DNA of 64,000 nt from Malus domestica (Eukaryota; Streptophyta; Magnoliopsida; Rosales; Rosaceae). The position numbers and the translations under genes were made by a program. Below are positions 27,847 to 56,887 of the stretch, one piece after another; position 1 is the first letter of the stretch; each line of letters starts with the position of its first letter. Location of the stretch: contig NC_091669.1 in assembly GCF_042453785.1 (NCBI RefSeq), positions 15,235,001 through 15,299,000 of the forward strand, written 5' to 3'. A model generated the notes under the pieces. The model was not told where the DNA came from, did no database searches, and was given only the letters and a program-made list of their open reading frames with translations.

Positions 27847-30551
27847 ATGTCGTCGCCAGTTCCAGACAATGTCTTCGTCTCCCAACTCTCCCGATTCGTC
27901 CTCTCCTGGGACGGCGCCGTTCTGGGCGTCTCCCTAGCTTGCGCCGCCGTGCACTCCGTCCTCAATTTCACCTCCACCTCCTCATCCCTAAGCAAGCTCC
28001 GTGATGCCCCCGCCGTCAAAGTCTCCGATCTCCGCTCAATCCTCCCCCTCGATCAATCCGACAAGCTCGTCGTTGTACGCGGCACCGTCGAAGCCAAGTC
28101 CGCCGTCGACGGCACGTGGACGGGCCTCCAGTCCGGCGTACTCGTCTCTAAAGAAACAAATCACAGAGCCGTCATCGTTGACAGTACCAAAACGGTACGT
28201 TTGCTTTCTTTCATGGCTCAGAAAATTCAGTTTCTGTTATTTCTTGCGGTGTGTTTGGATGAAAAATTGAATTCAGAATTGTTTTTGTGCAGTGTATAGT
28301 TCAGGAGTGGAAGGGCTTAATCGGATGGTCGTCTGATTTGAGAGCGATAATTTGGAGGTATTGGAGAGAGCACGAATCGAATTTGGTCAGAAAGGTACTC
28401 GAATGCCTTAATTTTTCTGTATTTTCTGTGAATTTTGATGGCAATTTAGTTTACTTGAATGCATTAAATTATGAAAAGAAATGGTAATTTTGATTTCATA
28501 TTTGTGTAGGTTCCTTTCGTTCTTGTTGATGGTGATCAATGGCCGATTCGGGATATTGTGGTTGTGAATGTGGAAGGATCAAGGCATCCTTTACCTCTTA
28601 CGATAGCTTATCATCATTTGCAACCTGTACATGCTTCTCCCTATTCTTTCTTGGAAGCACTTTTTGGCACTAACTACCCTGTGAGTTTTGCAAGTTTTCG
28701 CTCTCAATGTGCTTTTTAGTATCTGAGTTATTTGCTTTGGCGTTCTTTAGCTTATCAATTTTTGTTTCCGATTTGAAGGTTGCTTTCCTCAATGTTGAGA
28801 AGATTCTTCCGGTGGGAAAGGAGATTAGTGCTGTAGGTCTCTGCAGTTTGAGAAATGGAGTCCCGGAAATCAAGTCCTGCAAGGATCTTCCCTATTTTCT
28901 GTAAGTGGGTTTATTCTTCAACATGTTCTTTTCTTTTTTCGGGGTTAATATGTGTAGGATTTGTGATGAGGATGATTGACGTCAACATTGCTACCATTCC
29001 AGTTTAATGGTTGTTGAATAATATGATATACTAGCTATGATATTAGATACTTAGATTCCTTAACTAGTCAGTGGTAACTTAATTTGAACAGTCTGGTATA
29101 ATCTTCTCTCTCTCAGGAGTGTTTCCATCTTTGAAATAGCTAACGCCACTACGAAAAGCTTCTCTCTCTCTCTCAGAATCAGTTGCCACTTTTTTCACGA
29201 AGTATGACGTGCATCCTAAGATGGATTAGATTAACAATAATTATTGTTTTATTGGGTAAGTAAAGGAAGATTTTGATTCTGCCAATGTGTGAGGATGAAG
29301 AGAAGGCACAGCAAGGGGGTGATACAGAGAAGAGAAAGAAATAGAAAGAAAAGCGTAAAAGCTTCCAGTAACTTCTTGTTTACTCTATCATAATGTATCA
29401 GTTTAGCAGTGCTCTCATCCATTATAAAATCTGGTTCCGGAACTAAGTTTCAGTCTTGTCATCTAGAGGAGAGAAATATTATAGCTTTTTATAAACTTTA
29501 TTAGTTTGTTTTGAAGATTCCAGGTTTTTTTTATTGATAATATGTGGCCGTAGGAAGGTCCATTTCGTCCGAGGGCCCTATCTTATCTATACTTCTTTTT
29601 TTGTAATTTTCAGTCAGAAGCGTATTTATACTGTATTTTATCTGATATTGTATCTTTTGAAGCTCTGAGATGTCTAAGGACGAGATGGTTGCAGATCTTG
29701 CATCACGTGCAAGAATGCTGTTCTGGGTTGGGATTGTTCTTGGTTCAATGTCAATTGGAGTCCTTGGCTATGCTGTTGTGAGGTAAATATTTTCCTTGAA
29801 ATGTTAAATTCCTTTACCCTATTCTGCTTGCATCTTCCTGTTCAATCTTGATAGCTAGTAAATGTCTCTAGGGTGGTAACAAGGAGAACATTTTGCAACG
29901 TTACTGAATTTCCTCGGGTGCCATTTAACTATGTTGACTTCTGAATGTTCAGTTTCTTTTAATATCTCTCTCGTATGTCTTGCATGGCTAGAGATATCCT
30001 TTAAATGGTGTTTAACTTAACTTTCATTGTCAAGGAGCGGTGGAGAAAGGAAATTATGTTCAGTGAAATACAGGAATGCACGACATGCATCATGAATAAT
30101 TTTTTATTTTTTCTTTCAAGATTTGATATTACAACTTCAGTAATTACAAAACTGTCGCGTACTTGATGTTTGAATTTAAGAGACGAAATGGAAATGGTTA
30201 ACCAATGATGATCACAGCGATGTGAAATGAGTTTCAAGAAACTGATTAACAAATTGTTTCAGGAATTGGAATAGATGGAAAGTGGAGAGGCAACAACGGC
30301 AGTTACAGCAATCAAGCCGGGATGCTGACAGCAATGCGGAAGCTCAAATTGAAGACGAGGATGCAGGAGATGTTCCAGAGGGGCAGTTTTGTGTCATATG
30401 TCTGACGAGGAGAAGGCGGTCAGCATTCATTCCTTGCGGGCATCGAGTTTGTTGCCACCCCTGCAGCATATCAATCGAACGGGACATAGCACCGAAGTGT
30501 CCTGTTTGTCGGCAGGAGATCCGCACTTCACTGCGAATATATGATTCTTAA
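27847..30551 (+). CDS. SPL2: SPL2-type membrane RING E3 ubiquitin ligase, tandem copy 1
   Basis: Six exons (27847-28194, 28293-28394, 28510-28680, 28779-28900, 29663-29782, 30263-30551) give 383 residues. The protein has the SP1/SPL (mammalian MUL1/MAPL-like) layout. A first hydrophobic segment (about 16-38) is followed by an intermembrane-type GIDE/BAM domain containing VVVRGTVEAKS and KILPVGKEISAVG. A second transmembrane helix spans about 266-287. A cytosolic C-terminal RING-HC finger (about 331-371) has all ligands: CVIC, CGH, CCHPC and CPVC. Relatives sit in the outer membrane of chloroplasts, peroxisomes or mitochondria and ubiquitinate import machinery or other membrane proteins. The length and domain spacing match Arabidopsis SPL2 better than SP1. 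All splice sites are GT-AG and no defect is seen. It heads a direct tandem array with copies 2 and 3. Confidence 0.92.
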
Positions 30552-31013
30552 CATGTCTAGTATTTTGGAGAAACTGTGGCATGTTCGGTGTATATAAAAG
30601 TTGGAAGTAGATTCATCTCGTATGTACTTGTGAAGCCTTATGCGAAGCGTAAGCCAATTTCGTTATTGGTAATTTCGGGCCACATAGCAAACATCATTTT
30701 CTTTTTCTTGAGGGTTGCAGTACTTGGACACGAACGCAAATGCAACACGATTCACAAAATGATGAATAGTAATAGGTCGGGTTGGTGTCATGTCACTCGT
30801 AACTAGATTGTGAGCGGGGGAGAGTTTGACTTTGGAACATGAAGAAAACTTATCCCATCCAATCCTCTATATCAATCAACTGCGTTTGTAACCTGTTTGG
30901 TAAAAGTGAAATTTACTTGCATTGGTGTTGCAAAATTAACCGCCAAATTCCAAACCACCCTACACGCATCACCCACATATCCGAGTGTAAGAAACCAAAC
31001 GACAACTACCACA
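30552..31013. other. Spacer between SPL2-like copies 1 and 2
   Basis: 3' UTR of copy 1 and promoter of copy 2. The last about 60 bases before ATG 31014 (GTAAGAAACCAAACGACAAC and on) align with the copy 1 leader. No other gene is supported; an upstream in-frame ATG at 30897 is judged leader because family homology begins at 31014. Confidence 0.5.
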
Positions 31014-33503
31014 ATGTCGTCGGACAGCAATGCCATCATCTCCCTACTCTCGCAACTCGTCCTCTCCTGGGACGGCGCCGTTTTGGGCGTCGCCCTCGCT
31101 TGCGCCGCCATGCGCTCCGTCCTCAACTTCACCGCCTCCTCCTCAGCTCTAAGAAATCTCCGTCAGGCGCCAGCCGTCAAAGTCTCCGATCTCCGCTCAA
31201 TCCTCCCCCTTGATCACTCGGACAAGCTCGTCGTTGTACGCGGCACCGTCGAAGCGAAGTCCCTCGTCGACGGCACGTGGACGGCCTTCAAGTCCGGCGT
31301 ACTCGTCTCCAAAGATAGAAATGACAGAGCCGTCATCCTTCAGAGTACTAAGACGGTGCGTCTTTCTTTCTTGGCTCAGAAAATTCAATTTCCGTGATTT
31401 CTTGTGGTGTGTTTGGATGAAAATTTGAATTCCAAATTTGTTCTCCCAGTATATAATTCACAAGTGGAAGGGTTTTATTGGATTCTTTAATTTGAGATCG
31501 ATAGTATGGAGGTATTGGAGACACTGGAAAGACTCGGAAGAACACGAATCGAATTTGGTTAGAAAGGTACTCGATTGCCTTAATTTTTCAGTATTTCTGT
31601 GAATTTTGACGATGATCAAGCTTATTTTGCGTTAAACTATGAAAAGAAATGGTAATTTTGTTTTACATTTATGTAGGTTCCTTTCGTTCTTGTTGATGGT
31701 GATCAATGGCCGATTCGGGATATGGTGGTTGTGAATGTGGATGGATCAAGCCATCCCATACCTCTTACGATAGCTTATCATCATTTACAACCTGTAAATC
31801 CTTCACCATTTTCATTCTTGAAGGCACTTTTCGGCACTAACTACCCTGTGAGTTTTGCAAGCTTTCGCTCTCATTGTGCTATTTGCTTTGGCGTTCTTTA
31901 TCTTATCGTTTTTCTTTCCGAATTTGAAGATTGGTGTCCTCACTGTTGACAAGATTCTTCCGGTGGGAAAGGAGATTAGTGCTGTGGGTCTTTGCAGTTT
32001 GAAAAATGGAGTCTCGGAAATCAAGTTCTGCAACGATCTTCCCTATTTTCTGTAAGTGGGTTTGTTCTCCATCATGTTCTCTTCAGTATTGTGGTCGGGT
32101 ATGAAGAAATCATTATTTTTAATCTGCCAAACACTTTCTGGTGTTGTGTCTAGGACTCTCCTTTTTCGGGGTTATCTGTCTTGGATTTGTTAAATGGTTG
32201 ATTGCTTCAATGCTGCTACCCTTCCATTTTAATGGTTGTCAAACTGTATGGTTTACTAGCAATCAATCCTAGTGTTTTCATCTTTGAAATATCTAACGCC
32301 ACGCTAGCAATCCTCCTAGCACTACAAAGCTTGGTCTTAATGCTCCTATTACTGCTTTGCAATATATACGGTCAGGATCAGGGACACTTTTTACACAAAG
32401 TACGACACAGCTAGTGAGAAGTTTTTAATTTTGTTCACACTGAGAAGAGAGAAATTTTCTTTTATAATGTACCCGTGCAGTAGTACTGTCACCCTTTATA
32501 GTAGCCAGTGCTGGATTTAAGTTCAATCCTTCTCTTTTCTTTTCCTTTTCTTTCCGTGATTGATAATATGTGGCAGTAGGAAGGTCATTTTACGCTTGAG
32601 AGCCCTAAAGATTTTTTTTTCTGTTTTTAATTTTCTGTCAGAAGCGTATTTATACTGTATATTATCTGATATTGTATCACTTGCAGCTCTGAGATGTCTA
32701 AGGATGAGATGGTTGGAGATCTTGCATCAAGCACAAGAATGCTGTTCTGGACCGCATTTGTTCTTGGTTCAATGTCAATTGGAGTCCTTAGCTATGCAGT
32801 TGTGAGGTAAAACTTTTCCCTGAGATGTTAAGTTCTTTTACCCTATTCTGCTTGCAAATCTTGATAGTTGTTAAATGTCTCTAGGCTGGTATAACGGGCA
32901 GCCTTGTATAGTGCTCTGAATTACCATGATGTGTAATATCCTATTGATCCTTCATCGGGTTGTTAACAGTTTCTTTTAACATTTCTCTCGCATGTCTTGC
33001 ATGGATAAAGCTGTGCCTCCTTTGAAGGGTTTTTTTATCACAAGCAATATTCTACGCTATTCTAAACTAAGGGGAGGGGGGAAGGCCCTAACCACTAGGA
33101 ATTTGATAATTTATTTTCTCCACCGGGCCTGGACAATGAAAATGGTTTTTAACTCAACTTTCATCGCCAAGGAGCGGTGGAGAAAAGTCATTAAATTCCT
33201 AAATTTCCACTCTCTTGTTTCAGGAATTGGAATAAATGGAAAGTGTGGAGGCAACAAAGGCAGTTACAGCAATCAAGCCAGGCTGCTGACAGCGACGCTG
33301 AAGCTCAAATTGAAGAAGAGGATGTTCCAGAGGGACAGTTGTGTGTCATATGTCTAATGAGGAGAAGACGATCAGCATTCATTCCTTGTGGGCATCGAGT
33401 CTGTTGCCACCCCTGTAGCATATCAATCGAACGGGACATAGCACCAAAGTGTCCTGTTTGTCGGCAGGAGATCCGCACTTCACTGCGTGTATATGATTCT
33501 TAA
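31014..33503 (+). CDS. SPL2: SPL2-type membrane RING E3 ubiquitin ligase, tandem copy 2
   Basis: Six exons (31014-31355, 31450-31566, 31677-31847, 31930-32051, 32687-32806, 33224-33503) give 383 residues. Domains are as in copy 1: N-terminal hydrophobic segment, GIDE/BAM region, second membrane helix encoded by exon 5, and an intact RING (CVIC...CGH...CCHPC...CPVC). It is close to copy 1 even within introns, so duplication was fairly recent. Differences: exon 2 has five extra codons (RHWKDSEEHE region), and exon 6 has three fewer in the acidic linker before the RING. The start was set at 31014 because the homologous block begins MSS there; a longer frame from 30897 would add 39 unrelated residues. 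Intact and probably functional. Confidence 0.92.
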
Positions 33504-34403
33504 CATGGTATCCTAGTATTAGGAGAAACGATGTGTGGGAATTTTGCTTCTGGGGTTAAGTGGTAAGAGTTGGAAGGATTATAGTTTAGGTATGTTTTGG
33601 TGTATGTAAAAGTTGAAGTAGATTCATCTTGTACGTAATTGTGAAGCTTTGTGCTACACGAATGTTTTAATTGGTACTGACTACTCTGAGTAAGAAGCTT
33701 TAACCATTGGAAGTGTATTAGATAGATGACCCTCTAAGGGGTGTAAGTTTTTACCAAATTACCGTATCAACCAAATTACGACTTAGAATCGTACATAATT
33801 GTGTCCAAAATTATTATACCATAACCTATGTTATATAATTTATTTATTATATTTGTACAATTATATGTATTGTAATTACTATTAGTTAAATTGTACAGAA
33901 AAATAAACTTATAAAGATGGACGATGAATATTGATATCATGACACCTTTAGGGCTACTACAAAGTATGGGGGCTAAAGGCATATAAATTGACAAAATATG
34001 GGTGTTACTGGGATAGCAACAATGTGATTTAAATTCGTTTTTGGTGAAGGAATCGAATTTAAGATTTCTTATTTATAAGTGAAGAGGATTACTATGAAAC
34101 CGTAGTATCAAGTGGTATCGTAAATATATTATTCTGTCAAAATTTCCTAATTAATTAGGACTTCACAATGTCCTTAAATGAGCATAAATTAAAGTTGAAC
34201 CGCCTCAAATGCGCACCAAAATGGTGAATCGCTAAATCACCCATGTCTCCGATTAAATCTACTAAAAGACCACCACTTCCCGAAAACTCCCACCGTCTCT
34301 CCTCCAGCCCGCCACTCCACCAGTCGCGGCGCCAAACCACCACCTTCCCTTCTCACACCGTTTCCCCTCTGATACATGTAGAACCCAAACGACAATCATC
34401 GCA
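33504..34403. other. Spacer between SPL2-like copies 2 and 3
   Basis: AT-rich DNA with a SINE-like B-box relic on the minus strand (around 34040-34110). From about 34300 there is a CCAGTCGCGGCGCCAAAC block that recurs upstream of the decayed fourth copy at 38003. No gene is seen. Confidence 0.5.
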
Positions 34404-36571
34404 ATGTCGTTGCACGAGCGAGCCGTAATCAACCTAGTCTCCCAACTCGCCCTCTCCTGCGACGGCGCCGTTTTGGGCGTAGTCCTAGCGTGCGCTGCCG
34501 TGCGTACCGTCATCAAGTTCGCCTACACTTCCTCAGCCCTGCGCAAGCTCCGTAACGCTCCCTACGTCAAAGTCTCCGACCTCCGCGCAATCCTCGCCCC
34601 CGACGAATCTCAGCCCTCAGATGCAAAGCTCGTCGTCTTACGCGGCACCGTCGACGGCAAGTCGAATAGCCCCAAATCCGGCGTATTCGTCTCTCGGGGA
34701 ACAAAGAACAGTGCCGTCGTCGTTCAGAGAACTCAAACGGTGATTTTTTATTTCTGTCGTTGCTCAGTAAATTTAATCTTCGTTTTTGTTTGGAGGAAAC
34801 TGAACTGGAAATTTCAATTTTTGTAAAGTGTGTTTATAAGGATCGGAAGAACTTCATCGGATTTCCGTTTGATTTGAGAAGTTTAATTTTGAAGCCTTGG
34901 AGAGAGCAAGAGTCGAAGGATTTAAGAACGGTACTGGAACTGGTTAATTATTTTCAATATTTTCTGTGAATTTCTATGGTTATTTTAAATTTATTTGAAT
35001 GCATAAAATTTAGAAATTAAAGGGTAAATTTTGATTTATATTGGTGTAGGTTCCTTTTGTTCTTGTTGAAGGTAGTCGAAGGAGGGTTTCGGAATTTGTT
35101 GTTGTGAATGTAGATGAATCAAGACATCCCTTACCTCTTACTACAGTTTATCTTAATTTTCATCCTGTTAATGCTTCTCCCTACAAATATAAACTCGTTG
35201 ATGCACTCTTCCGGCATGAATACCCGGTGAGTTTTGCTAGTTTTGCCTCCCATTGTGTGCTTCTTAGGATCTCAGTTATTTGCTCCAGTGCTCCTTAGCT
35301 TCTCCTTTTTATGATGTCGTTTTTCGTTTCTGGTTTGGAAGATTGGTTTTCTCGATGAAGAGAAGATTCTTCCATTGGGAAAGGAAATTAGCGCTGTCGG
35401 TCTCTGCAGTTTAAAAAATGGAGTGCCGGATATCAAGTCGTGCAAAGATCTTCCCTATTTTCTGTAAGTGAGCTTGTTCTTGAACATGGTCTCTTTAATC
35501 TCTATATTTCAGTATTGCCGTCGGATATGAAAAGTTTATTAATTACTCTGGAAAATGCCTTCTCTATCCTGTTAATGGTTGTCAAATAGTCTGGTATATT
35601 AGCTAGGACATCAGTAACTTGTAGTTTATTCTATCATAATATACCTGTGCAGCAGTGCTCTCATCCATTGGATTTATTTTGTGGCTAAAACCTTGAACTC
35701 GGATTTAAGTTTCAGTTCGGTCATCCAGGGGACAAATATTCTGTTGTCAAATAATATATATTGCTTTACCTTCTTTCTTTTTGTGTTGAAGATTCCAATT
35801 CTCTGCTGTTCTTTTTTGTTATACCTCACTGTTTGATAGTATGTTGCTGTAAGAACGTGAGTTTATTTATTGCTCGACTTCCCTGAATGATATTGTGTCT
35901 TTTACAGCTCTGAGATGTCTAAGGATGAGATGGTTGTGGAACTTACTTCACGCACAAGAGTGCTATTCTGGAGTGGGATTGTTCTTGTTTCAATGTCAAT
36001 TGGAATCCTTGGCTATGCTGTTTCGAGGTGCACATTTCTTTCCAAATGTGACATTCTTTCACTCCATTCTACTTGCGAGTTCTTGTTCAATATCGATAGG
36101 GCTATTTGATGTTTCTAGGCCGATGTAAAGGACAACTTTTTACAGTCCACGGACATGAGTTGTAGATCTCATACTCACCCACTATAATTTAAGAGATGAA
36201 ATTGAAATGGTTAAACACTGATGATCACATTGATCGGAAATGTGAGTTTCGTTAAACTGATTTACATGTATTATTTCAGGAATTGGGATAAATTGAAAGC
36301 GTGGAAGCAAGGAAGGCAGTCACAGCAATCAATCCCTGCTGCTGACGGCAATACTGAAACTCAAATTGAAGAAGAGGAGGAAGTAGGAGAGGTTCCAGAT
36401 GGACAGTTGTGTGTCATATGTCTGATGAGGAGAAGGCGATCGGCATTCATTCCTTGCGGGCATCGTGTTTGCTGCCACCCGTGTAGCATATCAATCCAAC
36501 GGAATGTAACACCATGCTGTCCCGTTTGCCGGCAGGATATCCGCGCTTCAGTGCGAATATATGATTCTTAA
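34404..36571 (+). CDS. SPL2: SPL2-type membrane RING E3 ubiquitin ligase, tandem copy 3
   Basis: Six exons (34404-34739, 34829-34930, 35050-35226, 35342-35463, 35908-36027, 36280-36571) give 382 residues, beginning MSLHERAVINLVSQ. It is more diverged from copies 1 and 2 than they are from each other. The RING (CVIC, CGH, CCHPC, CPVC) and both membrane segments are kept. Oddities: exon 1 lacks about six residues after GTVDGKS, a stretch that copy 1, copy 2 and the decayed copy 4 all retain (EAKS...GKW or GTW); exon 3 has two extra codons (YKYKLVDALF); and the first intron donor is GTGATT. The lost piece lies in the first part of the GIDE/BAM region and may alter that domain. Otherwise intact. 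Confidence 0.9.
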
Positions 36572-36800
36572 CGTCGGTGTTCTAGTATTAGGAGAAACTA
36601 TGTGAGGGACTGTTCGTCTCGGGTTAAAGTGCTAGAGACTAGAGCTCAAAGTAGTGTGGTTTAGGCATGTTTTGTGTATTTAACAAAGATACTAATTTAT
36701 GTATTTTGTAGTTTTGAAAAGGAAAATTACACTAATTTCTGAAAATTGCTAGTTTGTTTTTTTTCTGCTGGATTGAAGACTCTAACCATTGAAATTAAGG

Positions 36801-37392
36801 AAAACTAATGAAAAAGGTCTGAAAACTTTGAGTTTTAATGATAAGGACAAAATAAAGGGTAAAGTGAATAGTACCAAGATTGCCTTTTTAGTGTAAAAAT
36901 ATGGTTTTTCGTTAAAGTGAACAGTACCAGATACTTTTCGTTAAAGTTCCCTTGAAATTATGGCAGTCCCACATCCATTGAATTCTGAAAGTCTGGAGAA
37001 ATGAAGAGAGAGAATAATCCTATTGGGTCTTGAATTATGTTTTGGGCTTAAATTAAGTTAAACATTTTAATCGGGCTATAAATGCACATAAATTGGGTTT
37101 CATAATTAAATATCCAACATAAATAAATAAATATTTATTTAATTTGGTCCGGTTTGATTTCTGAACTAAGAAAACTGAAACCGAACGAGCCATTTTAGTT
37201 CGGTTCGGTTTTTGACATTTGGGTTGATTTCGGTTTTCGATTTTTTTTAAGGGAACTTTAACGAAAAGCATCTGGTACTGTTCACTTTAACGAAAAATCA
37301 CATTTTTACTCAATCCTGGTACTATTCATTTTACCCTTTATTTTGTCCTTATCATTAAAACTCAAAGTTTTCAAGCCATTTTCATTAGTTTT
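36801..37392. mobile_element. Foldback element with about 150-bp inverted ends
   Basis: Left arm 36801-36955 and right arm 37245-37392 are inverted copies sharing AAAACTTTGAGTTTTAATGA and ACAAAATAAAGGGTAAA; only a few bases differ. The 290-bp middle includes a minus-strand Asn/Lys/Arg-rich frame that is not convincing as a gene. Non-autonomous DNA element; target duplication not resolved. Confidence 0.7.
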
Positions 37393-37978
37393 CTTTTTTT
37401 TAACCCTTATATGTTATATTCAACTAAGTTTTTTTTGTTACATTGAATTTTTTTTTATAAAAATTGACATTTTTGAAACTAGAGATTAAAATATAGTTAT
37501 CAATGATAAATACATGGATCAGTGTCACTCATAACTCAATTTTGACACATTAAACACGCTCAGCTAATGTGATATACATTTTTACGGGTTAGAACAATAG
37601 AATAATTATACTAAATTAATTTTATCTCAACTAAGGATATGTATAGGTGATATGCTGGAGTTTGAAAATTAAAGCAAAAATTAAACCGTCTCAGAGCATT
37701 TCCAAAAGAGATGTCAAAATGTTTAAATCAGCAGTAACGATAATAAAAGATAGCAATAACGTTTTCCAACCGAAAAACCAAATCTGATGTAACATGACAT
37801 GAAAATATATCTCTCCTCCTTGTTGCCAAATTTGATAGCACCTTCAAAAGAAATTTGATTAATTTTTAAATGCTTTTTATTATTTTTTTTATTGATTTAA
37901 AGCATTGCTTTTTTGTTTCTTCCCATCACCAATGCAATATTTAATACTTTAATACTTTTTAATTCATTTTCTTTTATT
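37393..37978. other. Intergenic AT-rich DNA
   Basis: No gene, repeat pair or RNA signal recognised between the foldback element and the duplicated promoter of the decayed fourth SPL2-like copy. Confidence 0.5.
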
Positions 37979-37979
37979 C

Positions 37980-38502
37980 TCCTCCATCCCGCCACTCCAC
38001 CAGTCGCGGCGCCAAACGACCACCTTCTCTTCTCACACCGCTTCCCCCTAATACATGTAGAACCCAAACGACAATGCAATGTCGTTGCACGAGCGAGCCG
38101 TAATAAACCTATTCTCCCAACTCGCCCTCTCCTACAACGGCGCCGCTTTGGGGGTAGTCCTAGCGTGCGCCGCCTCGCGTACCGTCATCAAGTTCGCCTA
38201 CACCTCCTCAGCGCTGCTCAAGCTCCGTAACGCTCCCTACGTCAAAGTCTCCGGACACCGCGCAATCCTCGCCCCTGACGAATCTCAGCCCTCCGATGCA
38301 AAGCTCGTCGTCTTACGCGGCACCGTCGAAGCCAAGTCCGCCGTCGTCGGCAAGTGGAATAGCCTCAAATCCGGCGTATTCGTCTCCCGGGGAAACAAAG
38401 AACAGTGCCGTCGTCGTTCAAAGAACCAAACCGCGCGTTTTGGTTTCTTTCGTTTCTCAGTAAACTGAATCGGAAATTACAATTTTTGTAAAGTGTGTTT
38501 AT
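37980..38502 (+). pseudogene. Decayed fourth SPL2-like copy (exon 1 and stub of exon 2)
   Basis: Homology to copy 3 starts in the promoter (about 37980). It continues through exon 1 (ATG 38079, MSLHERAVINLFSQLALSYN...) and intron 1, and stops a few bases into exon 2 (TGTGTTTA, about 38494-38502). An extra A in CGGGGAAACAAAG (about 38392-38396) shifts the frame, and the intron 1 donor is lost (CCGCGCG instead of ACGGTG). All later exons, including the RING, are absent. It retains the EAKSAVVGKWNSL stretch that copy 3 lost, so it derives from the ancestor of copy 3 rather than from today's copy 3. No functional product is expected. Confidence 0.88.
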
Positions 38503-38532
38503 TAGAGGCACGTATGGTAAGCTTTGTTGGGA

Positions 38533-38575
38533 ATCCCACATCGCTCACGCAAGGGTTCTTTGTGCTGTTTATAAA
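38533..38575 (+). promoter_or_regulatory. Pol III-type snRNA promoter: USE and TATA
   Basis: ATCCCACATCG (38533-38543) is an exact match to the plant snRNA upstream sequence element (RTCCCACATCG). A TATA box TTTATAAA (38568-38575) follows after 24 bases. That spacing is the one known for Pol III-transcribed plant U6, U3 and MRP genes; Pol II snRNA genes place the boxes about ten bases further apart. The predicted start is about 20-24 bases downstream, where the P1 stem of the MRP RNA begins. Confidence 0.9.
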
Positions 38576-38594
38576 GCTTGTTGGAGAACCTACT

Positions 38595-38862
38595 AATGAC
38601 ACCACTGGACGAGGCGATTGGGTCATATTTCTGTAAAAAGAATTAGACCCAGGAAAGTCCCCGGGCCCCTATCTGCAGAGATGCAGGCCTGGAAACAGGT
38701 ACCCTCCGTAGGCTTGGAGTCTTATCGCCCCGTGCGATGGGCTGAGACACGTGTGGAGCCTTTTAGGCTTCAAGCCCGGACTAATCTTGGCCGACTTAAC
38801 AGTTATTCGCTTGGTCCATTGGACTAACTGAACGGGGCTTACGTTTCAGTGGTGTCATTTTT
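38595..38862 (+). ncRNA. RNase MRP RNA gene
   Basis: The RNA component of RNase MRP, the nucleolar ribonucleoprotein that processes pre-rRNA; the call is from motifs seen in the sequence. The ends AATGACACCACTG (38595-38607) and CAGTGGTGTCATT (38847-38859) pair perfectly over 13 bp as helix P1. A P3-like hairpin has arms GGGTC and GACCC (about 38620-38650). Conserved region I, GGAAAGTCCCCGG (38652-38664), can pair with conserved region V, ACGGGGCTTA (38832-38841), to form P4 with a bulged U. Next is CTGCA-GAGA-TGCAG, a P8-like hairpin carrying a GAGA loop similar to the MRP GARAR motif. Promoter (USE and TATA at Pol III spacing) and T-run terminator flank it. Length of about 265 nt fits plant MRP RNA. 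Plants use protein-only RNase P, which makes RNase P RNA unlikely. A 69-codon frame inside it is fortuitous. All key elements look intact, so it may be active. Confidence 0.88.
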
Positions 38863-38865
38863 TTT
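38858..38865 (+). terminator. Pol III T-run terminator of the MRP RNA gene
   Basis: Eight consecutive T residues immediately follow the 3' strand of the P1 stem, the usual Pol III stop. Confidence 0.85.
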
Positions 38866-38953
38866 ATATTATTTTTCGATTGAAAATGATAAAATACACA
38901 TTTTTACTTATTCAACATAATAGTGAGAAAGAAAAGATTTGTGTGAGAAATTA

Positions 38954-39536
38954 AGAGCATATTTGGTACTTTACTTGAATCCAAATTTTTAAACTCAAAA
39001 GTAATTTTCAAGTTTTAGGCCTTAAAAACTTATTTGGTAGGACTATTTTCAAAAACTGAATTCAAGACTAACTAAAAAATATAGTCTATTCTCTAAAAAC
39101 ATAAAAAGTCAGTTTTTAGAGATTTTAAATTTAAACTCATTCATTTCTTTCTCCCTTCTCCCCTCTCACTCCAAATCTATCTCTCTTTTATTCTCTCTCT
39201 CCTTTTTTTCTTCCTATTTCGTCTCTCCTCAAATCCGTTCTCTTCATTCTTTCGGTTATTTCTCACACATCTTCCTCTCTATCTCGTCCGATCTTCTCTT
39301 CTTTCTCTTTCCTTTAATCATCTTTTACTTTCTTTCCTTCTCTTTCCTCTCTCTATCTTTCATGCGACCCCCTCTTTTTAGATCTCTTTGTCTAGTTTAA
39401 GTCATAAGATTTAAAATTTTTACATCGCAAACCAATCAAGTTTTTTAATCTTAAAGAAAATTGTTTTCAAAAAATGTTCTTAAGAAATGTTTTGAGAAAT
39501 GATAAAAAATTTCAAATAGGAAACCAAACAAGCTCT
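38954..39536 (+). mobile_element. hAT-like MITE, copy A
   Basis: Ends AGAGCATATTTGGTAC and, in reverse complement, TAGAGCTTGTTTGGTTTCC are similar inverted termini. The interior has a CT-rich stretch (TCTCTCTTTTATTCTCTC). A second copy in the same orientation lies at 48337-48917. Non-coding. Confidence 0.6.
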
Positions 39537-39561
39537 AAAATATGTGGAAATCACTTATTGA

Positions 39562-39732
39562 TTAGTTTGGATGTGTTTTTAAAATGACTGAAAACGTTTT
39601 TGGTGAAAATGTTATCTCTAAAAAGCATATAACTGGTGCTTCTTACAGAAAACGCTTCAAGTGTTTTTAAAACCTAAAAATATTTTCTCTAAAAAGTTTT
39701 CAATCGTTTTAAAAGCACATCCAAATAAGCTT
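39562..39732. mobile_element. Short foldback MITE
   Basis: Left end TAGTTTGGATGTGTTTTTAA and right end CACATCCAAATAAGC are inverted copies. GTTTTC and GAAAAC words repeat through the 170-bp unit. Non-coding. Confidence 0.5.
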
Positions 39733-40490
39733 ATGTTTTATATTTTGCAATTGTTCCCGTAATGTACAATCCGATTTTCAATCGATTGAATAGCAGGCTT
39801 GTAGTTGAATCGAGATTGGCGATTAGTACAAGATTGAAAATCTCTCTTTCTCGCAGCTCGTGCTTTATGGCGAACAAATGAGAAGGATCAAATATGATTA
39901 TCATCTTAATCATGACTTTTCACCCTTGCACATGACATACATACATAGGTAAAGCTAGAGAAAATTAAACTGGAAACTTTGAGGTGGACCGAAATTGGGT
40001 ATATTATTGCGCGGATTTGAAAACTATTTCGTTTTTAGTTTGTTTGGTAAAGATAAAGGAAAAATATGTGGAAGAAATTAACAATGAAAAAAGATAAAGG
40101 GATGGATGAGAAAGAAATGAAGGAGATTAAACGAATTTGGAAGAAAATAGCTTCAAATTAGTTTTCGATTTCATTTTGTGTTTCACTCAACTCATTTCAT
40201 CCACGTTCATTTCATATTTCTTCCACCATCCTCGTATACTACTTGAACCCAAAATAAGAATGAAAAAGTTCAGAATTTGTGGACCACTCCACAGATGGAG
40301 AAGTTAAAGGAGAAGGAGAAATCAAGTAGATATAAAGCTAGAACACTAAACTGCAAACCCAATCTTAAATTTGAAAAATAATAAATACACTCGTATCTAA
40401 TTATGTCGGTTGTTTTCGTTTAATTAAATACGATAATCAGGAATAAAAACCGTAAAGTTCAAAATAAAAATAAAAATATAACCACCTAGT
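39733..40490. other. Intergenic downstream of NSP1
   Basis: AT-rich DNA containing the 3' flank of the minus-strand NSP1 gene. No other gene is recognised. Confidence 0.5.
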
Positions 40491-42149
40491 TTAATTGTTG
40501 CCTTCTCTCTCATGAGGCTTCCACAATGAACAAAAAGAAACAGGCTGCCCCTTCCACCACAACCCTACACACCCATCCTTCTCATCCACTTTCATCTCCC
40601 AATTACTATCATACTTCCTCAGCAAGGCTCTTCCTCCATCAATGGCATCCTCCCCAAACACCTCCCCCACAAACCCTACCCTTCTCATCCTCTCACCCCA
40701 CTTCTCCTTCCCCTCATTCATCTCCCCCCGGTTCGTCAGTGCCTTCGCTGCCTCCCCTTCCATCACCCTCCTCTCCTCGCTCTCCCGCCCTTTGAACGCC
40801 GCGCTGGTCGAGTCCAAGAACCTCCACAAGTACTCCACCTGCCTCGAAAACCCCGTCGCAAAATCCCCGCAGTTGTTGCAGCTGCACTCCATGTTGTTCT
40901 CGCTTAGGATCACCCCCTTTGGCTCCATGCTCCTCAGGGACTTCAAGAACTCGGTTCTCTCATCCGGGGCGTTGTGGTTCAGTTGGTGTAGCCTGAATTG
41001 CACGCAAACGATCAGTGTTTCGTCATTGGAGGCATCGATCAGTTGAGCATTCAGAGTTTTCAATGGCTGATCGTCGAGGCGCTTAATTTGCAAATTGATG
41101 TTCATGTACTTGGCGAAACTGAGGAGTCTATTGGAGAAATTTTCACCGGGAGGACCTACTGCAAATGGGGTCCCTCTGTTTTGGTTGTTTTCAGCGCCGG
41201 CAATAACTGTGATCTTGACCAATGGCGGAGGGCCGCCTGGCCGGTGAGTCAGGGCCTCGAGCAGAGTAGGCCATTGCATACCATGAGACACACCGACATC
41301 GACAATGTGAAGGGTTCGAGTTCGATCAAATTCTTCCGCAATAAGTTGGAGAATTGAAGAGTTCGCAATGTTATTTGGAAATGCAAACCATGGACTCACC
41401 TCATAGAATTTCATCAGAGATTTTTGGAAAAATCTTGGTTCTGTGGAAGTGAAAGTAACCGGCGCCGCTGAGGCAGAGCCGTTAGGGGCAGAGGAGGAGG
41501 AGGAGGAGGACAGGTGCTGATTCAGCGCATGGAGCCCGTGAGCTGCCAAGCGGTGGTTGGCGTCGCCGGTGACTGAGGCAAGCTCGTGGAGAACGAAGAG
41601 GAGGTGCTGGACACGTGTCGAATTCCCACCTGTGATGGCTGAGGCACAAGGGTTTAGCAACTGCTCTGCCCACCTCCCTTCCTTGCTATTACCGTTATTA
41701 CAGTTATTCCCCGTACCCTTGGCTGTCCCTTTTTTGTTCCCATTTGATTTCTTAACTGGCACCACTACTACCTCTTCACCTGATTGGTTCCCCGGGACGG
41801 CAGGATTGATCGGACGGCCGTGGTGGTTCTTCCGATCAATGTGTTGCTGTTCCGGGGACGCCTTTCGCTTCTTAGATGAATCGGTAGGTGACGGATGATT
41901 CAAATTGGCTGGATTTGGGGGCCCTGTGGTGGTTGTTGGGATTGAAATGCCAGTTGGGTTGTTGAGACAAGTAGGATTGGTGGTGGGATGAACAAGATCA
42001 TGGCTCTCATCCCACCATTGAAGTCCTCCATCGATGTCATTTGAATGGTAAGGATCATCCCAGAAAGATGGGAAGAAAGTGACTGAATCTTCAAGCCAAT
42101 CCAAGATATGATCTGAGGTGGAGTTTGGCTCTGGTTGTTCAGTGGTCAT
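40491..42149 (-). CDS. NSP1: GRAS transcription factor NSP1 (Nodulation Signaling Pathway 1)
   Basis: Single-exon, 552 residues, about the family's usual length. The N-terminus has the NSP1-specific ILDWLEDSVTFFPSFWDDPY (15-34). A basic stretch KKRKASPEQQ (93-102) may serve nuclear import. Low-complexity Gly/Asn/Lys follows. The GRAS domain begins at EGRWAEQLLNP (about 157) with the first leucine-rich region, then the VHIID-type block LHIVDVGVSHG (280-290). PFYRE-like and SAW regions complete it, ending near QPVSFCSLW. Known role: in legumes NSP1 acts with NSP2 below the calcium-spiking pathway to switch on nodulation genes. In all plants it supports arbuscular mycorrhiza and strigolactone synthesis genes such as D27. 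A Ser-run (214-220) is low complexity. The leader on the minus strand is CT-rich. No defect is seen. Confidence 0.95.
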   Translation of the reverse strand: MTTEQPEPNSTSDHILDWLEDSVTFFPSFWDDPYHSNDIDGGLQWWDESHDLVHPTTNPTCLNNPTGISIPTTTTGPPNPANLNHPSPTDSSKKRKASPEQQHIDRKNHHGRPINPAVPGNQSGEEVVVVPVKKSNGNKKGTAKGTGNNCNNGNSKEGRWAEQLLNPCASAITGGNSTRVQHLLFVLHELASVTGDANHRLAAHGLHALNQHLSSSSSSSAPNGSASAAPVTFTSTEPRFFQKSLMKFYEVSPWFAFPNNIANSSILQLIAEEFDRTRTLHIVDVGVSHGMQWPTLLEALTHRPGGPPPLVKITVIAGAENNQNRGTPFAVGPPGENFSNRLLSFAKYMNINLQIKRLDDQPLKTLNAQLIDASNDETLIVCVQFRLHQLNHNAPDERTEFLKSLRSMEPKGVILSENNMECSCNNCGDFATGFSRQVEYLWRFLDSTSAAFKGRESEERRVMEGEAAKALTNRGEMNEGKEKWGERMRRVGFVGEVFGEDAIDGGRALLRKYDSNWEMKVDEKDGCVGLWWKGQPVSFCSLWKPHEREGNN

Positions 42150-43654
42150 TGTGCTTGAGAATTTCAGAAAGGGAAGAGGAAGTGAAGATGATGAAGAGAG
42201 AAAAGGGGTTTCTTAAGGTAGGTGACAAATTTTTTTTTTTTTTTTGTTTTTGTCAAAAGGTGACAAAGTTTGATCATTGACCAAAATGGATGGAGGTATT
42301 TTATGGGATACCCTCCAAGTTCTGAATGATTTTCAAAGTGATTCACAAAGTTTCAATTTTTCCGTATTGCACCATAATGTTTTGAAGTAATATCAATTTA
42401 TGCTTTTGATGTAATTGATTATTTGATATTTCATTAAATTGATGTTATGGTGAGAGTGGAATCACGAGTATGAGCTGATGTGACTCACATTTGCACCACA
42501 TTGATAGAAGAAAAAAAAAACCTAAAAATCCTAAAAAACTCGACATAGAGCTGCGTCTTCTCTTAAATCGATGCTTTGTTTTTCAAAATGACAATCAATC
42601 GGATCAAATCGTGCAAGGTATGTCACATCTCATATTCGGACTCCACATATGGCGCCTTGTCAATTTAATGAAGGGTTAGATGTTCAAATAGACGAAATAT
42701 TTGAATTAATACAATTTCAAAACTTCAGGGTGCAATGCAAGAAATTTAAACTTGATGACACATTTAAAAAAAAAAAAATTATAGGATCAAACGTTAAATG
42801 TGTTAAATGTTAAATTAATGGATTAAGGCAATGGGGCTGCATGAATGAGACAAGGGAAGGCATATTGTAATGTGGGGTGTGCTGTTAATTTGGACGATGT
42901 GATGTTTCATTAGGGATAATCAACTCTAATTAAGTAATTAACCCTTGTGTGTCTTGAAAGGTTAACTTATTCCTTGGCATGTCATGCCAATTGAGATCCA
43001 CTAATTACGATTAGATATAGAGATGAAGCTGCTGTGAAAATGTGATTAGCGTTGAATTTAAATAGTCTGCAGACGGCAGATACTGGTTCAAAAGAATTAA
43101 AAATTGTAAACACTTCGTTTGCTACTGGTTTGTGTTTTTGGAAAGACTCTTAAACATGTTTGGTTTTGAAGGTGGACCTTTTCTATTTCATTTGTCAATA
43201 TTTATGTTCTTCTCTTTGCCCCCTAATGTTTTAATTAAATCTAATGGTGATGTTGTGTGGTATTTCTTCTTGACACAAGAGGACCAATTAGCTAGAGAGT
43301 TTGAGTGGCTGTGCCTCCCTTTTTTGCCTACTCAAATTCAATCCTCTCTCTTGGCAGTTACCACCTCTTTTTCTGAGAAAATGTAAAATAAGGACGGAAT
43401 GTGACAACTTTAAATAAAGAATGTAAGAAAGGGAACCGGATTATCTAGCCCCCCAGTTGATATGATTCTTGTTTTTAGAGTTTGATTACTAAGTTCTTTC
43501 TTCTTCATTGTATCCCTGCATCACCGTCGTCGGGCTATCTCATCGTTGGTGGCCATCTTCGACGTTGGGTAGAGTCCGCCGCCTACACTCGGGGTTCTCT
43601 CTCTCAAGTTGGATCAGAAGTTGTGATTTTTTTTTTCATGAATATATTGAGTGG
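42150..43654. other. NSP1 upstream region and intergenic DNA
   Basis: The NSP1 5' leader (CT-rich on the minus strand) extends to about 42230, where a T-run occurs on the plus strand. The rest is AT-rich. A frame of 84 codons at 43132-43386 has no recognisable motif and is not called. Confidence 0.45.
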
Positions 43655-43855
43655 TTGTTGCCCTCTTTGATGACATATTGATTGAATATTGACGACATAT
43701 CAACTGAACACACTTTTATGAATGTAAGTTGTAACTATTCGTACTAAATAACCGTGATTGTTGCCCTCTTTGATGACATATTGATTGAATATTGACGACA
43801 TATTAACGCACTTTTGTATTTGTAAGTTGTAACTATTCGTACTAAATAATTTTAA
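43655..43855 (+). repeat. Tandem duplication, two units of about 100 bp
   Basis: TTGTTGCCCTCTTTGATGAC through ACTATTCGTACTAAATAA occurs twice (about 43655-43753 and 43757-43850). A deletion of a few bases and a handful of substitutions separate the copies. Non-coding. Confidence 0.85.
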
Positions 43856-44629
43856 ACCAACTGTAAAATAAATAAATAAAATCATAATTAACAGTCCAAT
43901 TTATCGGACGGCCCTTAAACATTTCACATTATATTACTTAATAAGGATTTCAGTGAATCAAACTATATTACTTAAAACACATTAGTTTCAGAAACTAAAA
44001 AAAATAAAAAATACGAGAAGGATTCTAAACAACATATTATTAGCACTGCCCTTTTTTTTTTTTGGGTGAAAGTACAGCAAAATTAGGCGAGATTAGCTAT
44101 TTGTTAATAGTTGCGTACGAGACACCTACTCTTCCCAAAGGAAAAATGACATTGCACCTTGAAACCCTCGCCCCTCCACTCTCTACCAAATTTTTTTAAT
44201 ATCTAAATTATATATTAATAAAATCATGTTTGTCAACCAAAACCTCAATAAATTACCATTCTAATCCTCTCACCAGAACTCAACAAAAATAAAAAATGTG
44301 GACAATTTAGTATACGCATAACACAAATTTTATTGTTTTTTATAATAACATCACAACCATGTAAATTACCATTCTACATTCCCCATGTTCTCCTACCTTT
44401 TCTTTTCCCACTTTTTTTATTTGTCTTTTTTTATTTTTGAGTTGTCATCCACGCTCATTCAGAATAAGTCGTACTAAAATAAAAAAAACATATTTAGTTG
44501 CACCCTTAGAGGGTGTGTGCCGATTGCTAGTAAGAATTATAAAAAGGTACATGTAAGGAGACTAGGCCAACACCATCAAACAGTCAACAAAAACGATGAG
44601 TAGGAAAAAAAGGCAAATTGCGTGTATGA
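43856..44629. other. Intergenic AT-rich DNA
   Basis: No gene or clear repeat pair recognised. Confidence 0.45.
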
Positions 44630-45610
44630 ACAGTGACTGCAAATGATAGGATAATTGACCACCAACGTCAAGCGTAAGCTGCAGCCTTATAAGAGTCTAG
44701 CAAGTAGGCGACCTGGTTGCCGTCCCGATAGATATGTGTAGGAACAAAACTCATCTGACGAAACCATGAAACTGTTGACAAAGCCTTATATAAGTAATGT
44801 TGAACCAAAGTGGAATCAGTTTTAATCCAAAGGTGTTTCCAGTCACAAACCCATGCTACACGAACTGCCTCAATAAAAGCTAAATTAAATTTTCGCTGTC
44901 ACCGAACTCACAAATTCTGTCCAAGAAGCAAATAGCGCCAAGGACTTGGCCTTAACTGGTATGGAAATCGCCTCCAAAACTCGCACACTCATTAGAATAA
45001 GAGCCATATATATTCACCTTAATCCACCCCAACTGCGAAGGATGCTAGTGAACAGGGGGCCGAAGCCAAGAGCGGCGAAATACCTAGCAATGAGAAAATA
45101 GGCAAAGAAGTAGAAGGAAGGTGCCGGCTAGAAAATCATATTGAAGACGATTCCCAAAAACAGTCCGTAAACCAATGCTTAGCATATTCCGAAGGAACCA
45201 AATGCCCCAAATAAAAGTACAAAGTAAAATGATCCAAAGCTGACGAGTTGATCTAGAGAAGCCAGCAAGGTAAGGCTATGAGAAGACAAATCTTTTAAAC
45301 CTAAGCCCCCCAAATGTTTTGGACGACAACAAAGTCTCCAAGAAACAATCGGAATGCCTCTGGAATCAGTATCCCCCGACCAAAAGAAATTACAAATCCA
45401 ACTGAACATGATTCAGTGAAGACGAGGCCAAGCATAAACCTGAAAGCTGTAGATAAGCACACTCCAAATCACTGACGAGATAAGCTGTTGATGACCCACT
45501 TGGGAAAGCATATGACTCTTCCATGCTGACAGTTTGCACCTGACTTTATTGGCAATGTCTTGGAAGAAAATTCTCAGAGGACGACCTTGAAAAATGGGGA
45601 CACCCAAATA
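44630..45610 (-). pseudogene. LINE (non-LTR retrotransposon) 3'-end remnant
   Basis: On the minus strand, frames at 45607-45413 and 45409-45179 encode the C-terminal side of a plant L1-type reverse transcriptase: GVPIFQGRPLRIFFQDIANK, KLSAWKSHMLSQVG, then ICNFFWSGD and LGGLGLKDL. Further downstream (about 44900-44660) are RNase H pieces: KTDSTLVQHYLY and HIYRDGNQVAYLL. The order RT then RNase H is that of plant L1 elements. The frames are separated by stops and shifts; the catalytic RT core is missing, so this is a truncated relic. Confidence 0.85.
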
Positions 45611-48336
45611 TTAAAAGGAAGAACCTATAAGCCAATATCAAGAAGAGTAGCGCCATCCACAAACCAATCTTTACTTCTTACTCACCCCTCTCACTTTTCG
45701 GGTCAGATCGAATGAATGAAGAAGATGAATAACAAAAAATTAACAAGAATATGTGAGAGATACAAATGAGCGTGAATAGCACTATCCTACCAAGAATACC
45801 CAAGATGGAACACTTTTTAGGCTGAGCATACTTCCCTAAGAAAGCCAAGGATTTCTCTTTGTTAACTTGCTGGTCAATACAACGATCTAGTCATATTAAT
45901 TTCACCTCTAATTGAGAGATCTAAAGTTCGAATCTCGTGAATGACGAATTACAGTAAATAATGTTTAGAACCCCTAATTCTAGACCATTGAAGATTGTTT
46001 TCTGGGGTGGGCTGCAAGAAAGTAGTACATCTTACTGGATTAGCAAACTACTCCTCAAGTTGCTCTAAACTTCGTGAAAGGCTTAAACCCCTTGTGCTTT
46101 TTGTTTGGACCCAAAATTAAATGGCCCGGTTTCTGGGAAACATGAGACGCCTCTTACCAGCCCTTCAGTCTGCCATTGCATGGACCAGCTGGAAATCGAA
46201 TGAATCTCTGCAGCAGTGGTCAGCAGCAACATCTCACGAGGCGATGCTGCTCAGAGAAATCAAAAGTTCCTTCAGAATGATCGGGTACAATTTTGGAACT
46301 TACTACTCATTTGTCATTTGGTTATAAATTGAACAATTTGTGGTACTGTTTCACAACACACAACATATTGATGTTCCTTTCCTGCAATATTTTTCTAATA
46401 GTTGAGAAAATCAACGAACAAAAGAGAGAAGAAAATAAATAGATGAGTAATTCAACCGCCTCTTCTGTACTTTAACTAGGTCTGCTATTTGATTGTTACT
46501 GAGGAGTTAATCTCGTCCATTTTAGTTATAAAATAAATAGGGTTGTTTTATTGACACCCCATATTTTTATGAAAACATTCCAGATCCAAAAGATTCCTCA
46601 AAAATTCTAACTTTGTCCTTCATTTTTCTGGAGACACCCCCCACCCCATAAAGAAGTTAATGGCAAACAAGCCCCAGTAAGACAGCCACCTATCTCCGAA
46701 AGCCTCCATCATCGACATCTGCACAACCGGCAACTCTTATACCGTAGGTAACAACACATCACCTTAACTCATCCAACTGGATAACCCTTCAGCCCCATCA
46801 CCTCCGTTGCGAAAGTTGTCGGTTAGCACCATTCAACCTTTCTCTGGCGCGAAAGTCTGTCGTCTGACACCCTAACTCGCCCACCCCATCACATAGAGAG
46901 AGAGAGCCCAGAATTTCTTCGATGGTTGGCTGCCGACATGTTGAATAGGGGGTGTGGATGGGTTTTTTTTTTGGAAAAATTAGTATCCGGTCCTAGTTTT
47001 TACTGTTTATTGACTAAGACCTTATTAGTTCTCAAATTTTGATTCAAGTCCCTATCATTAATGTGATAATGAATTTACATGTTTATTATATAATTTTTAA
47101 TATAAAAATTAGTAATTAATTTAGGGTTTAATACTCACACCTCTATTAAACTTCTAATTAATTTTCAATTCAAACATTTCCAAAACAATAAAAAATTAAA
47201 TTAAGTTTGTACCTATTAGTTATATATATATATATAAAGATTCTCAATTTTTTAATCTTAAATGTACCCATTCATATGATTTTTCAATTTTTAAATCTTA
47301 AATGTACCTATTCTCAAATATATCAATTTGTTATATGTAAAATGTACCCTTTTTTTAATATAAAATCCATTCAAATTTTTTAATCTATGTTTAAACTTAT
47401 ATGGGTACATTCTTTTTCATTGATTTGAGAATGTATCCATGTTTTGGTACAATACCTTTTTTTGTTAATTTTGGTTAATGTACCCATACATATATGTACA
47501 CACACACACAATATAATAGAGAGTATAATTTATATTTTATTATTTTTAATCCCATAAATTATGGATTTTATTTAAAATCTCATTAATATAAACAATTACA
47601 AATTTCAATTTTCAATTTTAATTTTTAATTTAAAAATATAGTAACTTACATTATTATATTAATGTCGGGGACCTTAATAAAAAACTAAAAACTAAAAAGG
47701 TTTCAATTAAAGAATATTGATAGTTAGGGACCGCATCCAAAGTGTCCCTTTTTTTTTGTCCATCTCAATTTAGTTTGAATAGGGGTAAAAGAGGAAGTTC
47801 ATGCAAGAAAATAAAAATATAGGGTGTATTTATAAGATTGTGGGGTCTTAGTAAAACTACCCAATAAATACTCTTTAAAAAGTCACACTAATAAAAAAAT
47901 AACCACTGGAAAATATCAGCAATAAATCAAAATAGATAACAAGTTTATTGTTTTTTTTTCTTCTTTTGATCAGCAACAAGTTTATTATTAGCTAATACTG
48001 TGTTATTGACTTTGAGCCTTGTTACCCAATTTCTGTATTTATATTTATCTTTAATCTTTCATTTATACATAGTTTTATAGTTTATTGTTTTTATTAGTTT
48101 GTTGGTTTTATTTTATTTTAATTTTTTATTTAGTGAAGACAAAGTGTCGTCATTGTAGAAAATTTGTGGAAAGTGCACCTACCCGTCTTCATTGAATTTT
48201 TCCATGTTCTCTTTATTCATGTTTAGATTCGGAATCTTTCACCAAGCTTCCCCTTCATTCCTTTCATTATTTAAGAGAGGAGAGCTTTTAAACCACTTTT
48301 TAACAAACTTCCAATTGTATTATTTGAAGAAAGTTT
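45611..48336. other. Intergenic repeat relics
   Basis: Holds a SINE-like B box (AAAGTTCGAATCTCG, about 45921-45935), a TA microsatellite (47221-47236) and an AT-rich stretch bounded by CGGTCCTAG...TTATTGACTAAGACC (about 46991) and GGGACC-containing sequence (about 47665-47730) that looks like a decayed DNA element. A 68-codon frame at 46121-46327 (SAIAWTSWKSNESLQQW) is not recognised. Confidence 0.35.
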
Positions 48337-48917
48337 AGAGCATGATTGGTATTTTATTTGAATCTAATTTTTTAAACTTAAAAACATTTTTCAAGTTTTA
48401 AGCCTTAAAAACTTGTTTGGTATGATTATTTTCAAAAACTAAATTCAAGACGAACTAAAAAATATAGTCTATTATTTAAAAACATAAAAAGTGAGTTTTT
48501 AGAGTTTTTAAACTTAAACTTACTTCTTTATTTTCTCTCCCTCCTCCCCTCTCACTCCAAATCTATCTCTCTTTTCTTCTTTCTCTCTCCCCCTTCTCTT
48601 TTTTTTTAAAACATTTTTCGTCTCTCATCCAATCCACTCTCTTCATTCTCTTGATTATTTCTCTCACTCATCTTCCTCTTTATCTCCTCCGATCTTCCCA
48701 CTTCTTTCTCTTTCCTCCAATCATCTCTTACTTTCTTTCCTTCTCTCTCATCTTTCTCTCTCGACCCCTTTTTATGGATCTTTTTGTCCAGTTTTAGTTA
48801 TAAGATTTAAAAAATTTAAATCATATACCAAACAAGTTTTTTAGTCTTAAAGAAAATTGTTTTCAAGAAAAATTCTTAAGAAATGTTTTGAGAAATTATA
48901 AAAAAATTCAAAAATAA
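48337..48917 (+). mobile_element. hAT-like MITE, copy B
   Basis: Begins TAGAGCATGATTGGTATTTT and follows the same sequence as 38954-39536, including AAAAAATATAGTCTATT and the CT-rich centre. Its right end is more decayed (AATAAGCCCTTAG). Confidence 0.6.
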
Positions 48918-56859: not shown

Positions 56860-56887
56860 AGTAAACTAAGATTAACCCTAAATTAAT

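What the first reader, a model, noticed from the sequence alone, without database searches (positions are those of the whole stretch)
38533..38865. An intact-looking RNase MRP RNA gene hidden among repeats
Seen: exact USE (ATCCCACATCG), TATA 24 bp further, a 13-bp perfect end-to-end stem, a P3-like GGGTC/GACCC hairpin, CR-I GGAAAGTCCCCGG with matching CR-V ACGGGGCTTA, a GAGA hairpin loop, and a T8 terminator. Known: these are the defining parts of MRP RNA and of plant Pol III snRNA-type promoters. No protein-gene annotation would find it, and a spurious 69-codon frame covers it.
Basis: partly seen in the sequence, partly recalled or inferred. Interest (0 to 1): 0.85.

Follow-up and report, generated by a model that had tools for sequence, protein, structure and literature searches.

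The report
A plant RNase MRP RNA gene
This is an ordinary, intact-looking gene for the RNA part of RNase MRP, an enzyme that trims ribosomal RNA; the same plant genome holds a second, diverged copy, so the find is real but expected.

Summary
RNase_MRP (RF00030) is the only Rfam family that reaches its gathering score in the 64 kb window: 38599-38854 +, full length, 81.3 bits against a cut-off of 50, E 6e-21. Promoter, end stem, conserved motifs and terminator lie where stated. It is not the only locus. A search of the assembly (651 Mb, 19 contigs; 24 of 5375 first-look candidates scored) found one more match over the cut-off, on contig C7, 68 bits. The two copies agree at 216 of 264 aligned transcript bases. 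Outside the transcript, USE (11/11) and TATA (8/8) are fully kept while spacer (9/23), leader (9/19), upstream (11/33) and downstream (12/25) have drifted. Four base pairs, in P1 and P3, differ on both sides and still pair. This argues that both were kept as working Pol III genes; no transcript could be checked. The neighbouring GRAS protein is closest to Prunus proteins, so the plant is in or near Rosaceae. An exact USE alone is weak evidence: the window's other two lie in Cassandra-like LTRs, with another TATA spacing. A new member of a known kind; low surprise.

The parts
38533..38543 (+). USE (upstream sequence element) ATCCCACATCG
   Evidence: exact match to RTCCCACATCG (consensus seen in a passage of PMC9845283); 11 of 11 identical in the C7 paralog
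38568..38575 (+). TATA box TTTATAAA, 24 bases after the USE (26 to TATAAA)
   Evidence: 8 of 8 identical in the C7 paralog, whose gap is 23/25
38595..38859 (+). RNase MRP RNA, probable transcript (5' end inferred near 38595-38599, 25-29 bases after TATAAA starts; 3' end in the T run)
   Evidence: Rfam RF00030 at 38599-38854, 81.3 bits, model positions 1-266 of 266
38595..38607 (+). P1 5' strand
   Evidence: 13-bp perfect inverted repeat with 38847-38859
38612..38617 (+). P2 5' strand AGGCGA, pairs with 38807-38812
38620..38650 (+). P3: P3a GGGTC/GACCC with a short P3b hairpin TTCTGTAAAAAGAA at 38629-38642; shorter than the Rfam consensus P3
   Evidence: one double change each in P3a and P3b against the C7 paralog
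38652..38664 (+). CR-I GGAAAGTCCCCGG, 5' half of P4
38673..38686 (+). P8 hairpin CTGCA-GAGA-TGCAG with a GARA-type tetraloop
   Evidence: GARA variant of GARAR described in passages of PMC1796607 and PMC3737539
38688..38699 (+). P9 hairpin CCTG-GAAA-CAGG
38799..38805 (+). CR-IV ACAGTTA, one base before the P2 3' strand
   Evidence: published form AnAGUnA, 0-3 bases before 3' P2 (PMC1796607 passage)
38813..38825 (+). P19-type hairpin
38832..38841 (+). CR-V ACGGGGCTTA, 3' half of P4
38847..38859 (+). P1 3' strand
38858..38865 (+). T8 run, Pol III terminator (inferred)
   Evidence: the C7 paralog has a run of 9 T at the same place

Best explanation
An intact gene for the RNA subunit of nuclear RNase MRP in a rosaceous plant, most likely transcribed by RNA polymerase III from an upstream USE/TATA promoter and ended in the T8 run. 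The RNA folds into the MRP catalytic core (P1-P4 with CR-I/CR-IV/CR-V) plus the MRP-type P8 GARA loop, would bind the shared P/MRP proteins and help cleave precursor rRNA. Shown here: sequence, promoter geometry, family match, fold, a conserved paralog. Inferred: transcription, RNP assembly and catalysis.
For: Full-length Rfam match 81.3 bits, E 6.1e-21. USE-TATA gap of 24/26 bases against 32 at the window's Cassandra-like copies. Exact published P4 search patterns, once each in the window. Fold z -5.6. A second genomic copy over the cut-off with the same parts; USE 11/11 and TATA 8/8 kept while spacer 9/23, leader 9/19, upstream 11/33 and downstream 12/25 have drifted. Four pairs with a change on both sides that still pair, against 0 in five and 1 in one of the six slid versions.
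Against: No transcript evidence of any kind was available. P3 lacks 10 of the 14 Rfam P3 pairs through gaps and 2 of 67 consensus pairs are broken. The shuffle control for the paralog covariation is weak: 25 of 500 shuffles reach it, with only two sequences. No orthologous plant sequence could be fetched.
Confidence: 0.95

Rival explanations
1. A pseudogene: a silent duplicate, with the C7 copy doing the work.
For: There are two loci; flanks of the window copy are rearranged (a truncated gene copy ends at about 38505, 27 bases before the USE).
Against: The window copy scores higher (81.3 against 68.0 bits) and has the cleaner stem: P1 is perfect over 13 bp here, while the C7 copy has two non-pairs in the same helix. 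USE, TATA and terminator are complete, and only these are fully kept outside the transcript.
Confidence: 0.04
2. RNase P RNA rather than RNase MRP RNA.
For: The two families share P1-P4, CR-I, CR-IV and CR-V.
Against: Of overlapping clan matches only the best is listed, and that is MRP. The P8 loop is GAGA, a GARA-type loop described as MRP-specific (passages). A separate genome search with RF00009 did not complete.
Confidence: 0.01
3. A chance or repeat-derived stem-loop, or the 69-codon frame being a real gene.
For: Exact USE copies and T runs also occur elsewhere in the window.
Against: E 6.1e-21; the transcript matches nothing else in the window at E 1e-3; the frame starts with TTG and lies inside the RNA.
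Confidence: 0.001

Closest known systems
RNase MRP RNA, Rfam RF00030 (plant 7-2/MRP RNA)
   Same: Full-length model match with P1, P2, P3, P4 motifs, P8, P9, CR-IV and P19; type-3 Pol III promoter as described for plant MRP genes (PMC1796607 passage).
   Different: P3 is shorter than the family consensus (10 of 14 P3 pairs gapped); P8 loop is the four-base GARA form, not the five-base GARAR.
The second MRP locus of the same assembly, C7:26026523-26026783
   Same: 216 of 264 transcript bases, exact USE, TTTATAAA, T run.
   Different: 68.0 bits, weaker fold (z -2.5, 3 of 200 shuffles as stable), different neighbourhood.
Plant U6/U3 snRNA-type Pol III genes
   Same: USE and TATA at Pol III spacing, T-run terminator.
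   Different: The transcript is MRP RNA, not U6 or U3.

Membership tests
RNase MRP RNA (RF00030) | Covariance-model score over the curated gathering cut-off | tested here: met
   81.3 bits against 50, positions 1-266 of 266
RNase MRP RNA (RF00030) | P4 from CR-I and CR-V (gaaAGuCCCC ... acnnnanGGGGCUnannnu, 120-280 bases apart; PMC1796607 passage) | tested here: met
   both patterns exact, cores 171 bases apart
RNase MRP RNA (RF00030) | P8 hairpin with GARAR, or GARA, loop | tested here: met
   CTGCA-GAGA-TGCAG, 38673-38686; the GARA form
RNase MRP RNA (RF00030) | CR-IV AnAGUnA, 0-3 bases before the P2 3' strand | tested here: met
   ACAGTTA 38799-38805, P2 3' strand from 38807
RNase MRP RNA (RF00030) | P3 with two helices and an internal loop | tested here: inconclusive
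   P3a and a 4-bp P3b with a small internal loop fold here, but the Rfam P3b pairs are all gapped in the alignment
RNase MRP RNA (RF00030) | Three-base-pair P5 next to CR-I (PMC13184271 passage) | not tested
   no call made; the Rfam structure line holds no such pairs
RNase MRP RNA (RF00030) | Covariation that supports the helices | tested here: inconclusive
   32 of 67 consensus pairs changed on both sides (fitted alignment); 4 of 70 between two paralogs, 25 of 500 shuffles reach this; no orthologs
RNase MRP RNA (RF00030) | A transcript, in an RNP that cleaves pre-rRNA | not testable with these tools
   no RNA data held
Plant type-3 (USE/TATA) Pol III gene | USE RTCCCACATCG and TATA one helical turn closer than in Pol II snRNA genes | tested here: met
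   gap 24/26 here, against 32 at the window's Cassandra-like copies; rule seen in a passage of PMC9845283
Plant type-3 (USE/TATA) Pol III gene | T-run terminator just after the transcript | tested here: met
   T8 38858-38865
RNase P RNA | Better match to an RNase P model than to the MRP model | tested here: not met
   of overlapping matches within a clan the best is kept, and it is RF00030; no separate RNase P score was seen, and the RF00009 genome search did not complete

The most novel reading that the evidence does not exclude
The plant keeps two MRP RNA genes, about 18% diverged in the transcript, at unlinked loci, both under selection for promoter and fold. They could make two kinds of RNase MRP that differ in the variable domain, P1, P3 and P19, with different expression or substrate use.
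Probability: 0.08. Interest if true: 0.4.

Novelty: new member of a known kind. Interest (0 to 1): 0.13.

Why it matters
It gives a correct annotation of an RNA gene that protein-gene finders miss, and a pair of paralogs in one genome in which the promoter elements and helices stand out by conservation. It also shows that a reader without tools can recognise a structured RNA gene, and that an exact USE alone is not enough, since Cassandra-like LTRs carry it too.

Tried and rejected
Pseudogene, RNase P RNA and chance were considered and judged unlikely (see rivals). A homoeolog from whole-genome duplication as the source of the C7 copy was considered: three C7 stretches, 29,001 bases in all with a gap of 7,000 bases between two of them, share with the window only the MRP gene and repeats, and hold no match to the NSP1-like protein or the two RING-gene exons at E 1e-3. 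On each side of both MRP copies lie pieces of the same repeats in the same order, so a larger ancestral segment is not excluded. Literature searches by motif letters gave no plant MRP sequence (12 papers by listing, none opened); the search for 'RNase MRP RNA' with Malus and Rfam gave 0 papers. Alignment A2 used the wrong strand of L002 and was replaced by A3 and A4. In the A4 pair count, 8 of 70 pairs form only in the window copy, 1 only in the C7 copy and 1 in neither; four of the eight are in P19, where the alignment has a 4-base insertion and the C7 RNA can, by eye, pair GGTC with GACC in another register.

The genome-wide count of USE/TATA pairs, the DNA search for MRP fragments and the RF00009 search did not complete, so degenerate copies below the Rfam cut-off were not counted.

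Full report
Observation. A scan of the 64 kb window against 4227 Rfam families gives one match at the gathering score, RNase_MRP RF00030 at 38599-38854 on the + strand, 81.3 bits, cut-off 50, E 6.1e-21, model positions 1-266 of 266. A permissive scan of 33000-45000 lists 12 matches up to E 10; the other 11 all lie below their families' cut-offs. The RNA folds better than its shuffles (-112.6 kcal/mol, z -5.6, 0 of 200 as stable). Within the window the transcript matches only itself at E 1e-3.

Anatomy. USE 38533-38543; TTTATAAA 38568-38575; P1 38595-38607/38847-38859; P2 38612-38617/38807-38812; P3 38620-38650; CR-I 38652-38664; P8 38673-38686 with a GAGA loop; P9 38688-38699; CR-IV 38799-38805; P19-type hairpin 38813-38825; CR-V 38832-38841; T8 38858-38865. 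The gap from USE to TATA is 24 or 26 bases, depending on where the box is taken to begin. [quoted passage not shown] passages of PMC1796607 say that plant MRP genes have TATA and USE and that spacing sets the polymerase. The transcription start was not measured; 38595-38599 is 25-29 bases after the first base of TATAAA.

Fit to the family. Of 67 consensus base pairs in the Rfam alignment, 19 are the same as the consensus, 32 differ on both sides and still pair, 1 differs on one side, 2 are broken and 13 are gapped, 10 of them in P3. The alignment is fitted to that structure, so these numbers lean in its favour. Short stretches folded alone give P3 (z -3.9) and P19 (z -2.6) as stable hairpins; P9 alone is unremarkable (z -0.5), and the piece 38676-38694, which cuts P8, does not fold (z 1.0). 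The P4 search patterns of PMC1796607 are exact. The P8 loop is the four-base GARA form, which passages of PMC1796607 and PMC3737539 give as a known variant of GARAR.

Copies. In the assembly that holds the window (C9:15235001-15299000; 651,096,769 bases, 19 contigs) the RF00030 search scored 24 of 5375 first-look candidates and returned two matches, both over the cut-off: the window copy and C7:26026523-26026783 on the minus strand, 68.0 bits. Among the 14 control genomes one (Thermotoga maritima) gave a match, below the cut-off. Two is thus a lower bound, and weaker fragments were not counted. A passage of PMC3324470 gives two MRP RNAs for Arabidopsis and one for rice, so two is usual. The C7 copy has an exact USE, TTTATAAA 23 bases later and a run of 9 T.

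Paralog comparison. Identity by part: upstream 11/33, USE 11/11, spacer 9/23, TTTATAAA 8/8, leader 9/19, transcript 216/264, downstream 12/25. Within the transcript CR-I to P9 is 51/54. Of 70 named pairs (Rfam pairs plus outer P1, P3b and P4), 51 are the same, 4 changed on both sides (two in P1, one in P3a, one in P3b), 5 on one side, 8 pair only in the window copy, 1 only in C7, 1 in neither. Six versions with slid partners give 0 double changes in five and 1 in one; 25 of 500 shuffles reach 4. With two sequences this is supportive and not proof, and P4 never varies between them, so its pairing gets no covariation test here. The C7 RNA folds less well (z -2.5, 3 of 200 shuffles as stable).

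Setting. Upstream, 37978-38505 is a truncated copy of a gene repeated in tandem in the window (best match 34298-34840, 88% over the main piece; further copies near 27.9 and 31.0 kb). A downstream exon of that gene carries a RING domain (PF13920). The similarity ends 27 bases before the USE. Downstream, 38946-39516 is 83% like 48328-48912, with ends that look like terminal inverted repeats by eye. The intronless frame 40491-42149 on the minus strand is a GRAS protein (PF03514); its named best relatives are Prunus proteins at 80-83% identity, several called nodulation-signaling pathway 1 (434 proteins, 120 listed). It has one full-length match in the assembly; the next best is 33% identical.

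USE is not specific by itself. Two other exact USE copies, at 2858 and 56572, lie 6 bases inside ~295-bp repeats (2852-3146, 3216-3510, 56566-56860). These have the marks of Cassandra LTRs: the TG...CA ends, a 5S-like domain (RF00001, 37.2 and 31.4 bits for the two LTRs scanned, just under the cut-off 38), a TGGTATCAGAGCC primer site after the first LTR (site given in a passage of PMC7215508), and 5-bp target duplications ACAAG and AGTAA. In all three the TATA gap is 32, near the Pol II rather than the Pol III geometry. A fourth such LTR, on C7 (L004), also has the exact USE, so 3 of 4 seen have it and the fourth has two mismatches.

Verdict. A real, ordinary and probably working RNase MRP RNA gene, one of at least two in the genome. 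Transcription and function are inferred.

Noticed in passing
window 2852-3510 (two LTRs and an internal part) and 56566-56860 (single LTR); L004 about 418-707: Cassandra-like elements carry the plant snRNA-gene USE near the start of the LTR, exact in 3 of 4 LTRs seen, with a TATA-like box 32 bases on in the three window LTRs, besides the known 5S-like Pol III domain. In three Cassandra/TRIM papers searched for these terms (PMC10886601, PMC10853983, PMC7215508) 'snRNA', 'upstream sequence element' and CCCACATC do not occur; one search found no listed paper with Cassandra and these terms. It may be a second, snRNA-type promoter.
   Followed up: partly
window 27804-38505: A tandem array of RING-finger genes (copies near 27.8, 31.0 and 34.3 kb) that ends in a truncated first-exon copy 27 bases before the MRP promoter. 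The resemblance to SP1/SPL2-type ubiquitin ligases is recall.
   Followed up: partly
window 38946-39539 and 48328-48912; L003 3683-3888: A dispersed repeat with GAGC..TTTGGT-like inverted ends, found downstream of both MRP copies in the same order, together with a second shared repeat upstream of both (window 36801-36956, L003 5493-5648).
   Followed up: partly
window 40491-42149, minus strand: An intact GRAS frame of the NSP1 type (named relatives in Prunus at 80-83%), the only close copy found in the assembly.
   Followed up: partly
window 6092-8196 and 12583-14689: A 2.1 kb direct repeat at 99.4% identity, probably a recent duplication or a young LTR pair.
   Followed up: no
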